Shown here piece by piece: positions 5,902-11,731 of a DNA stretch of 64,000 nt. The notes under the pieces are model-generated. The model made no database searches. It worked only from the letters and a program-made list of their open reading frames with translations, and was not told the origin of the DNA. Position 1 is the first letter of the stretch. Each line of letters opens with the position of its first letter. A program made the position numbers and the translations under genes. This stretch comes from Streptomyces sp. NRRL S-350. Its GTDB lineage: Bacteria > Actinomycetota > Actinomycetes > Streptomycetales > Streptomycetaceae. Location: assembly GCF_000719705.1 (NCBI RefSeq), contig NZ_JOHO01000008.1, positions 1-64,000 on the forward strand. Direction: 5' to 3'.

Positions 5902-6933
5902 TCAGTGCCGGGTCGCGTATTCGGGGACGGTGTGCATGGGCGGCCGTTCCAGGGCGGTGATCGGGTGGGTGCTCGGGGTGAAGATGGGAGCCCCGCCGGC
6001 CGAGGCCCGGGGGACGGTTTCCGGGGCGCGGGCGAACTGGGTGAGGTAGGGGTGCACCAGGTCGGCGGAGGCCTTGAGCCGGTGGGCGCGGTCGAGCCGT
6101 TCGAGGGCGGTGCGGTAGATGGTGGCGGCCATCCGGCCGAGGGCCTGGCCGTCCTGGTGGCGGTGGTGCCGGACGCCGACGTCCACCTGCGCCAGGGCGT
6201 CCAGGCCGACCAGCTCCAGCGCGTCGACCAGCAGGCCGAGTTCGACCCCGTAGCCGGTGGGGAAGGGAAGCCGTTCGAGCAGCGAGCGGCGGGCCGCGTA
6301 CTCGCCGCCGAGGGGCTGGACGAAACCGGCGAGCTCCGGCCAGTGGAGGTTGAGCAGGGGGCGGGCGACGAGTTCGGTGACCCGGCCGCCGCCGGCCGGG
6401 ACGACGGCGCCGGACTCGGTTTCCAGCGGGCGGTCGTACATGGCCTTCACCAGCTGGATGGACCCGTCGGTCAGCAGCGGCCCGACGATGCCGGAGACGA
6501 AGGCCGGGTCGAACTCGCGCAGGTCGGCGTCCACGAAGCAGACGACGTCGCCGCGGGTGACCAGCAGGGAGCGCCACAGCACCTCGCCCTTGCCGGGGAC
6601 GGCGGGCAGCCGGGGCAGGATGGCGTCGCGGTGCTCGACCCGGGCGCCGGCCTCGGCGGCGACGGCGGCGGTGGCGTCGGAGGAGCCGGAGTCGACCACG
6701 ACGAGCTCGTCGACGAGCGGGAGGCGCTCCATCAGCTCCCGGCGGACGGTGCGGACGATGTCGCCGACGGTGGCCTCCTCGTCCAGGGCGGGCAGGACGA
6801 CGCTGACCGTGCGGCCGGTCCGTTCCTTGGCCGCGAGGAGGTCTTCGACCGGCCGGTCGGCCGCGCTCCAGGACCGGCGGCGCAGCCAGGACGCGGCCTG
6901 CGGCAGGAGCTCGGGGGTCGGTTCGGCGGGCAC
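5902..6933 (-). CDS. gpgS: Glucosyl-3-phosphoglycerate synthase (GT81)
   Basis: Protein of 343 aa started at GTG 6933, with GAGGAG about 8 nt upstream. It has a GT-A fold with VVLPALDEE (45-53), VVDSGSSD (79-86), GKGEVLWRSL (114-123) and the metal-binding DADLREFDPAFV (135-146), the pattern of glucosyl-3-phosphoglycerate synthases. It joins glucose from an NDP donor to 3-phosphoglycerate, the first step towards glucosylglycerate, a compatible solute and a precursor of methylglucose polysaccharide in mycobacteria. It lies upstream of otsA in the same direction. No gpgP phosphatase gene is seen nearby; OtsB is a trehalose-phosphate enzyme and not an obvious substitute. Confidence 0.85.
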   Translation of the reverse strand: MPAEPTPELLPQAASWLRRRSWSAADRPVEDLLAAKERTGRTVSVVLPALDEEATVGDIVRTVRRELMERLPLVDELVVVDSGSSDATAAVAAEAGARVEHRDAILPRLPAVPGKGEVLWRSLLVTRGDVVCFVDADLREFDPAFVSGIVGPLLTDGSIQLVKAMYDRPLETESGAVVPAGGGRVTELVARPLLNLHWPELAGFVQPLGGEYAARRSLLERLPFPTGYGVELGLLVDALELVGLDALAQVDVGVRHHRHQDGQALGRMAATIYRTALERLDRAHRLKASADLVHPYLTQFARAPETVPRASAGGAPIFTPSTHPITALERPPMHTVPEYATRH

Positions 6934-7083
6934 GGAAGTCTCCTCGGCGGGGTCGGGTGGGACGGCTCATCTCGCGTGGCGGACGGTCCCGTTCGGGTTC
7001 GACGCCTTCGGATACAGTCTTCGTACAGCGGTCGGACCTTTGCACGCCGGGGTCACCGTTGAGCGCCACCACAATTTCACAAG

Positions 7084-7215
7084 CTCATCCAGAGGGACTG
7101 AGGGAACGGCCCGTTGACGTCCCGGCAACCTTCTCGCCCGCCCGTCGTCCACGGGCCCCGGCGGGACAGGTGCCAATTCCGGCCTGTGGCGCGACCGCGC
7201 CGCGGGGAAGATGAG
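7084..7215 (+). promoter_or_regulatory. SAM-I (S-box) riboswitch in the metM leader
   Basis: The leader shows the S-box conserved blocks in order. P1 is CTCATC (7084-7089) pairing with GATGAG (7210-7215). The block CAGAGGGACTGAGGGAACGG (7090-7109) follows, then CCGGCAACC (7122-7130), and the AGGTGCCAATTCC block (about 7168-7180), which is highly diagnostic for S-adenosylmethionine binding. The 3' strand of P1 runs directly into the purine-rich GGAGAGAGG that should serve as ribosome binding site for metM. SAM-stabilised P1 would therefore mask it, implying translational repression by SAM. The aptamer assignment comes from the sequence; the mode of control is inferred. Confidence 0.88.
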
Positions 7216-7234
7216 GAGAGAGGCCTCCGCCACC

Positions 7235-8530
7235 ATGGCTATCACCGTGACGACCCCTTCCGGTGCCGCACCCGTTGCCGTCGATCTCGGCCCCGCCGCC
7301 GCCCTGTCCTGCCGGGAGTGCGGAACCCGTTTCCCGCTCGGCCCCAGCTTCGCGTGCCTGGAGTGTTTCGGCCCGCTGGAGATCGCCTACGAGTTCGGCA
7401 GCGAGAGCGCCGAGGAACTGCGCAAGCGGATCGAGTCCGGACCGGCGTCCGTCTGGCGCTACGCGCCGCTGCTGCCCGTCCCGGCCGACGTGGCGTCCAA
7501 GCCCAACCTGAACCCGGGGTGGACCCCGCTGGTGAAGGCGGACAACCTGGGCCGGGAGCTCGGCTTCACCGCCCAGCTGCACATCAAGGACGACTCCGGG
7601 AACCCGACCCACTCCTTCAAGGACCGCGTGGTGGCCTGCGCCATCGAGGCGGCCCGGGCGTTCGGGTACACGACGCTGTCCTGCTCGTCGACCGGCAACC
7701 TGGCCGGCGCGGTGGGTGCGGCGGCCGCCCGGGCGGGGCTGCGCTCCTGCGTGTTCATCCCGCACGACCTGGAGCAGGCCAAGGTCGTCATGGCCGGGGT
7801 GTACGGCGGCGAGCTGGTCGGTATCGAGGGCACCTACGACGACGTGAACCGCTTCTGCTCGGAGCTGATCGGCGACCCGGCCGGCGAGGGCTGGGGCTTC
7901 GTCAACGTCAACCTGCGGCCGTACTACGGCGAGGGCTCCAAGACGCTGGCGTACGAGATCTGCGAGCAGCTCGGCTGGCGGCTGCCGGAGCAGATCGTGA
8001 TCCCGATCGCCTCCGGCTCGCAGCTGACGAAGATCGACAAGGGGCTGCAGGAGCTGATCAAGCTCGGCCTGGTCGAGGACCGGCCGTACCGGATCTTCGG
8101 TGCCCAGGCCGAGGGCTGCTCGCCGGTGTCGGCCGCCTACAAGGCGGGCCGGGACGTGATCAAGCCGGTCAAGCCGAACACCATCGCCAAGTCGCTGGCG
8201 ATCGGCAACCCGGCCGACGGCCCGTACGTGCTGGACATCGCCCGTCGGACCGGCGGTGCCGTGGAGGACGTCACGGACGCCGAGGTCGTGGCGGCGATCC
8301 GGCTGCTGGCGCGGACCGAGGGGATCTTCGCCGAGACCGCGGGCGGGGTGACCGTCGGCGTGCTGAAGAAGCTGGTCGAGACCGGGCAGCTGGATCCGGC
8401 CAAGGAGACCGTCGCGATCAACACCGGCGACGGGCTGAAGACGCTGGACGCCGTCTCCGACGCCGGGATGACCGCCGTCATCCGCCCGACGCTGGACTCG
8501 TTCCGCGCCGCCGGCCTCGCGTCCGCCTGA
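7235..8530 (+). CDS. metM: Threonine-synthase-like PLP enzyme, probable homocysteine synthase MetM
   Basis: Protein of 431 aa, fold-type II PLP enzyme. It starts with a zinc-ribbon-like part (Cys26, Cys29, Cys41, Cys44). The PLP lysine is in SFKDR (Lys129), the phosphate loop is SSTGNLAG (151-158), and GSGSQLTKI-type residues follow. Annotation pipelines usually call it ThrC. In Streptomyces a ThrC homologue (MetM) encoded beside a sulfur carrier (MetO) is known to turn O-phosphohomoserine plus carrier thiocarboxylate into homocysteine. The SAM-I riboswitch upstream and metO downstream both fit that role rather than threonine synthesis. ATG 7235 is chosen because the in-frame ATG at 7211 lies inside the riboswitch P1 helix. 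Plain threonine synthase remains possible if no other thrC exists in the genome. Confidence 0.8.
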   Translation: MAITVTTPSGAAPVAVDLGPAAALSCRECGTRFPLGPSFACLECFGPLEIAYEFGSESAEELRKRIESGPASVWRYAPLLPVPADVASKPNLNPGWTPLVKADNLGRELGFTAQLHIKDDSGNPTHSFKDRVVACAIEAARAFGYTTLSCSSTGNLAGAVGAAAARAGLRSCVFIPHDLEQAKVVMAGVYGGELVGIEGTYDDVNRFCSELIGDPAGEGWGFVNVNLRPYYGEGSKTLAYEICEQLGWRLPEQIVIPIASGSQLTKIDKGLQELIKLGLVEDRPYRIFGAQAEGCSPVSAAYKAGRDVIKPVKPNTIAKSLAIGNPADGPYVLDIARRTGGAVEDVTDAEVVAAIRLLARTEGIFAETAGGVTVGVLKKLVETGQLDPAKETVAINTGDGLKTLDAVSDAGMTAVIRPTLDSFRAAGLASA

Positions 8531-8569
8531 ACCCGCCCGCCGCGCAGGGCCGCGCCGCCGCCCGCCGGC

Positions 8570-8703
8570 AGGCCGCACCCCGCAAGGCCGCACCCCGCAA
8601 GGCCGCACCCCCGCAAGGCCGCACCCCCGCAAGGCCGCACCCCCGCAAGGCCGCCCCGCCGCACCCCGCAAGACCGCACCTCCCGCAAGGCCGCACCCCG
8701 CTA
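8570..8703. repeat. Degenerate tandem repeat between metM and metO
   Basis: About eight imperfect copies of a 15-16 bp unit (GCAAGGCCGCACCCCC) fill most of the 181-nt gap between the two genes. The units vary mainly in the length of the C run and by small deletions, as expected from replication slippage. No start codon, hairpin or protein is evident in it. It ends immediately before the AGGAGAG ribosome binding site of metO. Confidence 0.85.
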
Positions 8704-8711
8704 GGAGAGCC

Positions 8712-8990
8712 ATGAGCGCCAACGTCCGCATCCCGACCATCCTGCGCACCTACACCGGCGGCGCCGCCGAGGTGACCGCCGAGGGCGCCACCCTGGCCGA
8801 GGTCATCGCCGACCTGGAGAAGAACCACCCGGGCATCGCGGCCCGCGTGCTGGACGACACCGGCAAGCTGCGCCGCTTCGTGAACGTCTACGTGAACGAC
8901 GACGACGTGCGCTTCGCCGAGGGCCTGGCGACCGAGATCAAGGACGGCGCCGGCGTCTCGATCATTCCGGCGGTGGCCGGCGGCTGCTGA
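8712..8990 (+). CDS. metO: MoaD/ThiS-family sulfur carrier protein (CysO/MetO type)
   Basis: Protein of 92 aa with the ubiquitin-like fold of CysO: IPTILRTYTGG near the start, LRRFVNVYVNDDDVRFAEGL in the middle and SIIPAVAGGC at the end. Sulfur carriers work through a C-terminal Gly-Gly thiocarboxylate. Here one extra Cys follows the di-glycine (codons GGC GGC TGC TGA), so the tail must be trimmed by a JAMM-type peptidase before activation. It has a good AGGAGAG site 5 nt before the ATG. It lies downstream of metM and should supply sulfur for MetM. CysM-dependent cysteine synthesis is a second possible use, since the protein strongly resembles mycobacterial CysO. Confidence 0.85.
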   Translation: MSANVRIPTILRTYTGGAAEVTAEGATLAEVIADLEKNHPGIAARVLDDTGKLRRFVNVYVNDDDVRFAEGLATEIKDGAGVSIIPAVAGGC

Positions 8991-9014
8991 GCCGTTCCCG
9001 CCCGCCTCGCCGGT

Positions 9015-9063
9015 CGGCCGCCCGTACCCACGGAATTCCGTTCTCCGTCGGTACGGGCGGCCG
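9015..9063. terminator. Hairpin terminator after metO
   Basis: A perfect 14-bp stem (CGGCCGCCCGTACC at 9015-9028 with 9050-9063) encloses a 21-nt loop that itself contains a short CGGAATTCCG palindrome. It sits 25 nt after the metO stop and probably ends the riboswitch-metM-metO transcript. Confidence 0.75.
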
Positions 9064-9546
9064 ATCGCATTCCGGCGGGAATGTTTTCCGGTCGAGCCGG
9101 AGTAGAGTGTGGCTCGGCTGGGAACAGGACTTCCCTTTCGGCCCTCCGCGGATGTCCGCGCCGTTCCGCCCGGAGGACGTCCGGCCGGTGAGACCGGGCC
9201 GTGAAACATGTCAGGCGGATGTCAGAATTCCCGCAGGCATTTGGGTAATTCGTCCGCTATGTCCGACGTGAAATGCCGAGATCTTCCCGGTTCGGGCCGC
9301 CCTGTCCCTTCGTGCCGCAACGCAAAGACCGGCGGCTGACCCTGTTGCAGAGGGCGTCGATCCGGATACATTCAGCGGCGGTCGACGCAATCACCCGCTC
9401 ACCGGGGGCCGTTGGGTGTTCCGTGCGGAGGGTTGCGGCGTGCACGGCTGCGCCCAGGGGGGGTTCCCCGGGCCGGCCTTCAAACCAACCCGGGCCCGCG
9501 ACCTGCGGGCGCGTGAAGGGCCAGCACAGCACTAGGGGAGTTCGGA
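9064..9546 (+). other. Long non-coding leader region before the cold shock gene
   Basis: About 480 nt without a convincing gene. The first part is comparatively AT-rich (around 9070-9260) and could hold the promoter. The remainder is likely 5' untranslated leader, with GGGGAG at 9533-9538 as ribosome site. Long structured leaders are common for cold shock genes. I see no known riboswitch motif in it. Confidence 0.5.
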
Positions 9547-9925: not shown

Positions 9926-9952
9926 CTTGCACTCGACCACCGTGAGTGCTAA
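9926..9952 (+). promoter_or_regulatory. CIRCE element 1 (HrcA operator) before groEL2
   Basis: CTTGCACTC-N9-GAGTGCTAA fits the CIRCE consensus TTAGCACTC-N9-GAGTGCTAA with the right half perfect and two mismatches in the left half. The left half overlaps a plausible -35 hexamer (TTGCAC, 9927-9932) and the right half overlaps the -10 area, so HrcA binding would block the promoter. Confidence 0.85.
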
Positions 9953-9961
9953 TCATTGGCG

Positions 9962-11731
<1,770 letters not shown>

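What the first reader, a model, noticed from the sequence alone, without database searches (positions are those of the whole stretch)
7084..8990. SAM riboswitch controls a PLP enzyme plus sulfur carrier: a homocysteine-forming unit, not threonine synthesis
Seen: an S-box aptamer, then a ThrC-like enzyme, then a CysO/MoaD-type carrier. Known: in Streptomyces a ThrC homologue (MetM) with a neighbouring carrier (MetO) makes homocysteine from O-phosphohomoserine. Inference: SAM shuts off this route by feedback, diverting O-phosphohomoserine back to threonine. The unit explains how a strain lacking classical metX/metB-type genes could make methionine, and shows that a thrC label here would be misleading.
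Basis: partly seen in the sequence, partly recalled or inferred. Interest (0 to 1): 0.82.

Follow-up and report, generated by a model that had tools for sequence, protein, structure and literature searches.

The report
SAM-switched homocysteine operon labelled threonine synthase
An RNA switch that should sense SAM sits in front of two genes that very probably make homocysteine for methionine rather than threonine; the arrangement is already described in Streptomyces, and here it is confirmed in a Kitasatospora-type genome and found to recur in many other actinobacteria.

Summary
One SAM (S-box, RF00162) aptamer lies at 7082-7217 + (70.4 bits), metM follows at 7235-8530 and a CysO/MoaD-type carrier, metO, at 8712-8990. 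All 61 sampled genomes of the genus (own included) have the same order. Correction: metB-type PF01053 genes are present.

The kind is known. MetM/MetO is Hasebe 2024 (not held); PMC12172450 credits it with a SAM riboswitch upstream of S. albulus metM; PMC8079986 lists the S-box before SLIV_16930-16925 as "threonine biosynthesis".

Additions: in 396 genomes across the phylum, the S-box lies just upstream of metM in at least 100 of 141 metM genomes. MetO of this genus usually ends -GGC, so it should need trimming. The 17-nt gap before the start codon leaves no room for a terminator, so translational control is likely. SAM binding and catalysis were not tested.

The parts
7082..7217 (+). SAM-I (S-box) riboswitch aptamer
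   Evidence: RF00162, 70.4 bits, whole model
7084..7089 (+). 5' arm of P1 (CUCAUC), pairs with 7210-7215 (GAUGAG)
   Evidence: Alignment; pairs checked; aptamer begins AGCTCATCC or TGCTCATCC in 61 of 61 genus leaders
7215..7223 (+). Purine-rich presumed ribosome-binding region overlapping and following the 3' arm of P1, followed by CCUCC
   Evidence: Sequence; GAGAGGCCTC or GAAAGGGCCTC after the aptamer in 59 of 61; function inferred
7235..8530 (+). metM: PLP enzyme of the threonine synthase fold; SFKDR lysine codon at 7619-7621; N-terminal CxxC...CxxC at 7310-7366
8557..8699 (+). About 16-nt tandem repeat array filling an unusually long metM-metO gap (181 nt; 19-104 nt in the 60 other genus genomes)
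8712..8990 (+). metO: CysO/MoaD-type sulfur carrier, C-terminus AVAGGC
   Evidence: PF02597, PDB relative 3dwg
8985..8987 (+). Codon for the extra C-terminal Cys after Gly-Gly
   Evidence: Sequence; -GGC in 29 of 30 other complete metO of the genus, -GG in one

Best explanation
This is the MetM/MetO homocysteine-forming operon under SAM-riboswitch feedback. Inferred mechanism: a JAMM protease removes the extra Cys of MetO; MoeZ adenylates its Gly-Gly end and loads it as a thiocarboxylate; MetM, a PLP enzyme of the threonine synthase fold, takes O-phosphohomoserine and uses MetO-COSH as sulfur donor to make homocysteine, where ThrC would add water to make threonine. When SAM is high, P1 of the aptamer is held closed over or next to the ribosome-binding region 17-19 nt before the start codon, metM translation falls, and O-phosphohomoserine is left to the separate ThrC. 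Shown here: the parts, their order, their conservation, the separate thrC, MoeZ and Mec in the genome, and no match to acyl-homoserine makers. Inferred: catalysis, SAM response, translational mode, trimming of the Cys.
For: RF00162 match. S-box, metM, metO order in 61 of 61 genus genomes, in 80 of 80 named loci, and S-box upstream of metM in at least 100 of 141 metM genomes of the phylum sample. Separate ThrC matching solved ThrC at 431-479 bits against 153-185 bits for MetM; MetM and ThrC are 35% identical and differ in motifs that the solved ThrC share. No MetX or HTS match. MoeZ, 745.9 bits against a cut-off of 647; JAMM protease gene beside a second carrier and a cysK/cysM-type gene. Published: SCO4293 and SCO4294 listed among co-regulated sulfate assimilation genes (PMC2267785 passages; that they are the orthologues is recalled, not tested). 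Hasebe 2024 reported MetM/MetO function (recalled; second-hand).
Against: Nothing biochemical was tested. PMC12172450 (passages) reports that Microcystis ThrC, 51.6% identical to S. albulus MetM and next to a metO-like gene, works as threonine synthase and threonine deaminase and that methionine did not rise, so MetM-like proteins can do ThrC chemistry. metB-type genes exist. In folding, P1 forms as well without as with enforcement (ensemble -100.8 against -100.6 kcal/mol) and the ribosome-binding region is partly paired in all states tried, so the switch itself is not demonstrated. 41 of 141 metM genomes showed no adjacent S-box and 18 of 98 loci no metO.
Confidence: 0.88

Rival explanations
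1. It is a second threonine synthase, or a threonine synthase/deaminase, and the riboswitch balances the aspartate family by lowering threonine synthesis when SAM is high.
For: It passes the TIGR00260 thrC cut-off. The Microcystis relative (51.6% identical to S. albulus MetM) has threonine synthase and deaminase activity (PMC12172450 passages). Every name printed for the best 120 homologues is 'threonine synthase', but these are automatic labels.
Against: Canonical ThrC in a hom-thrC-thrB order; metO next to it in 61 of 61 genus genomes (and the window); SAM rather than threonine as the expected signal; divergent shared ThrC motifs.
Confidence: 0.06
2. Homocysteine is made mainly by a PF01053 enzyme, and metM/metO is an auxiliary or sulfide-scavenging route.
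For: Two strong PF01053 genes; the C11 one passes the NF005871 cystathionine gamma-synthase cut-off (677.4 against 513 bits). Plant cystathionine gamma-synthase uses O-phosphohomoserine (recalled).
Against: No acyl-homoserine maker found (for MetX the control genomes ring only below the curated cut-off). The C11 gene lies about 4 kb from a gene that I recognise from its sequence as a cystathionine beta-synthase, as in reverse transsulfuration. The genome's only S-box is on metM.
Confidence: 0.05

Closest known systems
MetM/MetO of Streptomyces albulus (Hasebe 2024, AEM 90:e01247-24; not held; recalled and seen second-hand in PMC12172450)
   Same: ThrC-like PLP enzyme followed by a sulfur carrier, with an upstream SAM riboswitch; 82-85% identity of the window's MetM to many named Streptomyces homologues in the same arrangement
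   Different: Kitasatospora-type genome; MetO with an extra C-terminal Cys; repeat-filled metM-metO gap. The S. albulus sequence itself was not compared
S-box before SLIV_16930-SLIV_16925 in S. lividans TK24 (PMC8079986, passages with Table 3)
   Same: RF00162 riboswitch before a two-gene transcript filed under threonine biosynthesis
   Different: That paper names the function threonine biosynthesis; orthology was not tested by sequence here
CysM/CysO/Mec cysteine synthesis of mycobacteria
   Same: Sulfur carrier thiocarboxylate as donor to a PLP enzyme; an apparent mec-cysO-cysM group is elsewhere in this genome
   Different: Product and PLP enzyme type differ; metM/metO has no mec beside it in the window
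Canonical threonine synthase ThrC
   Same: Fold family, SFKDR lysine motif, presumed substrate O-phosphohomoserine
   Different: Shared ThrC motifs altered, N-terminal CxxC pair added, separate ThrC in the genome

Membership tests
SAM-I (S-box) riboswitch RF00162 | Covariance-model score above the gathering score | tested here: met
   70.4 against 44.4 bits
SAM-I (S-box) riboswitch RF00162 | Binds SAM and changes expression of the next gene | not testable with these tools
   Inference only
MetM/MetO homocysteine unit | ThrC-like PLP enzyme directly followed by a ThiS/MoaD-type carrier | tested here: met
MetM/MetO homocysteine unit | Separate ThrC and no acyl-homoserine maker in the same genome | tested here: met
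   MetB-type genes are nevertheless present
MetM/MetO homocysteine unit | Direct sequence relation to S. albulus MetM and MetO | not tested
   Those sequences were not fetched; 82-85% identity to named Streptomyces loci
MetM/MetO homocysteine unit | Makes homocysteine from O-phosphohomoserine and MetO thiocarboxylate | not testable with these tools
   Needs an enzyme assay
Sulfur carrier protein (CysO/MoaD/ThiS) | ThiS family domain and a C-terminal Gly-Gly | tested here: met
   PF02597; Gly-Gly present but followed by one Cys
Threonine synthase (ThrC) | Motifs shared by solved ThrC: NPTGSFKDRG, VNSVNP..EGQKT, PVGNAGN | tested here: not met
   MetM has NPTHSFKDRV, VNLRPYYGEGSKT, PIASGSQLT; the TIGR00260 score cut-off is met all the same

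The most novel reading that the evidence does not exclude
The S-box/metM/metO unit is an old, phylum-wide SAM feedback module of Actinomycetota rather than a Streptomyces speciality; and in the Kitasatospora lineage MetO is made as a pro-carrier ending Gly-Gly-Cys, which equals the carrier-cysteine adduct that Mec-type JAMM proteases cut, so one protease shared with the cysO-cysM pathway would gate both cysteine and methionine synthesis.
Probability: 0.3. Interest if true: 0.5.

Novelty: new member of a known kind. Interest (0 to 1): 0.3.

Why it matters
Homologues of this gene are named threonine synthase wherever the best 120 rows print a name, and PMC8079986 files an S-box of this kind under threonine biosynthesis, so models of amino-acid metabolism in antibiotic producers can put the homocysteine step and its feedback in the wrong place. 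The wide distribution suggests an annotation rule: a ThrC-like gene with an S-box before it and a small carrier ending near AVAGG after it is a candidate homocysteine synthase.

Tried and rejected
Folding the leader (free, P1 enforced, P1 forbidden) gave no clean two-state switch. A start at ATG 7211 inside P1 was rejected: out of frame in 14 of 61 relatives. Intrinsic termination before metM was rejected: 17 nt between aptamer and start codon, and the only terminator-like site in 6900-9150 is on the - strand at 8845-8830, about as many as in shuffles. The sigma-70-type promoter scan found nothing. Choosing the downstream ORF by greatest length failed because of high G+C and was replaced by tblastn; in a few rows the listed starts are unreliable, so the start was recounted by motif. 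A third ThrC-like gene (L052, G000:C10), about 30% identical to MetM, was not pursued. S-box against metO adjacency: 70 of 81 against 10 of 17, Fisher p 0.014; 2 of 100 loci with too little sequence downstream were dropped, and the test ignores shared ancestry, so it is only suggestive. No structure prediction was run.

Full report
OBSERVATION. cmscan of the whole window gives one RF00162 (SAM, S-box) match, 7082-7217 +, 70.4 bits; it is the only RF00162 match found in the genome. The next ORF, from ATG 7235, is a PF00291 PLP enzyme of the threonine synthase group. The next, 8712-8990, is a PF02597 carrier closest in the PDB to 3dwg, a mycobacterial antigen that I know as CysO.

START CODON AND LEADER. 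In 61 genomes of the genus, own included, 61 have an S-box and in 61 it lies directly before metM; 17 of 61 have a second S-box elsewhere. ATGGC follows the aptamer at 18, 17 or 19 nt in 47, 11 and 3 of 61, so the earlier ATG inside P1 is not the start. The last 13 nt of the aptamer match, GGGAAGATGAGGA, are the same in 61 of 61, and GAGAGGCCTC or GAAAGGGCCTC follows in 59 of 61. There is no room for an intrinsic terminator (17 nt). Translational control by P1 at the ribosome-binding region is the likely mode, but the folding models did not resolve a switch: P1 is predicted closed without any ligand term.

GENOME CONTEXT. The PALP search found 14 genes, metM included. One is a canonical ThrC of 366 aa between a homoserine dehydrogenase-like and a homoserine kinase-like ORF (the two neighbours were recognised from their sequences, not by a family search). 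It matches four solved ThrC at 431-479 bits; MetM matches the same four at 153-185 bits; the two are 35% identical. TIGR01392 (MetX) and PF04204 (HTS/MetA) found nothing. Controls: the MetX search rings in 9 of 14 known genomes but passes its cut-off in none; HTS rings in 8 of 14, 6 over the cut-off. PF01053 gives two strong genes: one at C11 passes a cystathionine gamma-synthase model and lies about 4 kb from a gene that looks like cystathionine beta-synthase; the other, at C42, passes none of the 25 models shown. MoeZ is present, as is an apparent mec-cysO-cysM group at C34 (the cysM there passes only the general cysKM model). Four ThiS-family genes were found in all.

ACTIVE SITE. The solved ThrC and the genome's own ThrC share NPTGSFKDRG, VNSVNP..EGQKT and PVGNAGN; MetM has NPTHSFKDRV, VNLRPYYGEGSKT and PIASGSQLT. 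This supports, without proving, different chemistry on a shared substrate. Against it, a Microcystis relative of MetM is reported to make and deaminate threonine (PMC12172450 passages).

DISTRIBUTION. In the 80 named loci kept (593 or more stretches had matched), 80 have the S-box core within 400 nt before the metM match and 80 have metO; the core occurs 80 times in 1.14 Mb counted over both strands. In 396 genomes drawn across the phylum, 141 have MetM at E up to 1e-60 and 199 have an S-box, 192 over the cut-off (with strict filters that lose weak matches). The printed S-box list was cut short: from the rows printed, 57 lie just upstream of metM, 5-173 nt. I fetched 48 of 49 further metM rows whose genomes had an unprinted S-box (the one left out is a second, weaker row of G395); 43 of 48 had the S-box upstream on the same strand, up to 234 nt from the aligned start of metM, one overlapping it by 27 nt. 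That makes at least 100 of 141 genomes. The other 41: 31 with no S-box found, 5 with one listed elsewhere, 5 fetched without one nearby (one of these, L293, has metM at a contig end). Of 12 loci fetched from the S-box-free genomes, 0 had one. Among the 100 metM loci a metO-like ORF follows in 80 of 98 with room: 58 end exactly AVAGG, 1 has another AGG end, 19 carry extra residues, 2 are unclear.

CARRIER END. In the genus, 29 of 30 other metO read to the end finish -GGC and one -GG; the remaining 30 fetched were cut short; the window's finishes -GGC. In the named set 66 end -GG, 13 -GGC, 1 -GGA. A residue after Gly-Gly must be removed before activation; Mec is the obvious candidate, because Gly-Gly-Cys is what its CysO-cysteine substrate looks like (recalled biochemistry; inference).

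WHAT IS KNOWN. Hasebe et al. 2024 described MetM/MetO; it is not held and I rely on recall and on passages of PMC12172450, which contrasts Microcystis with S. albulus metM and its upstream SAM riboswitch. PMC8079986 (passages) lists RF00162 before SLIV_16930-SLIV_16925 under threonine biosynthesis. PMC2267785 (passages) lists SCO4293 and SCO4294 with sulfate assimilation genes; PMC3293853 (passages) reports ArgR binding upstream of SCO4293; that SCO4293/4294 are the orthologues is recalled. [quoted passage not shown] PMC1262725 (passages, 2005) saw no conserved RNA structure before actinobacterial methionine operons. The listings of searches showed me no paper on the phylum-wide S-box/metM link or the -GGC end, but most subscription papers, Hasebe 2024 included, are outside the library.

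VERDICT. The additions are a Kitasatospora-type member, the phylum-wide association, and the -GGC carrier end.

Noticed in passing
L061-L074, L105-L107: A second S-box in 17 of 61 genus genomes lies about 200 nt before an ORF whose start reads like an IclR-family (NdgR-like, recalled) regulator in 17 of 17; the family was tested for one, L062. The window's genome lacks this copy.
   Followed up: partly
8531-8711: The metM-metO gap is 181 nt and filled by a tandem repeat of about 16 nt; the gap is 19-104 nt in the 60 other genus genomes.
   Followed up: partly
L300, L304-L306, L308-L310: Seven MetM homologues from S-box-free genomes also lack an adjacent metO; six of the seven are from one family, f15. 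They may use a distant carrier or do another reaction.
   Followed up: no
L052 (G000:C10:65013-65876): A third ThrC-like PLP enzyme, 409 aa, about 30% identical to MetM; role unknown.
   Followed up: no
9928-9988: Two CIRCE-like palindromes (motif recalled, read by eye) before the groEL-like ORF that starts near 10110.
   Followed up: no
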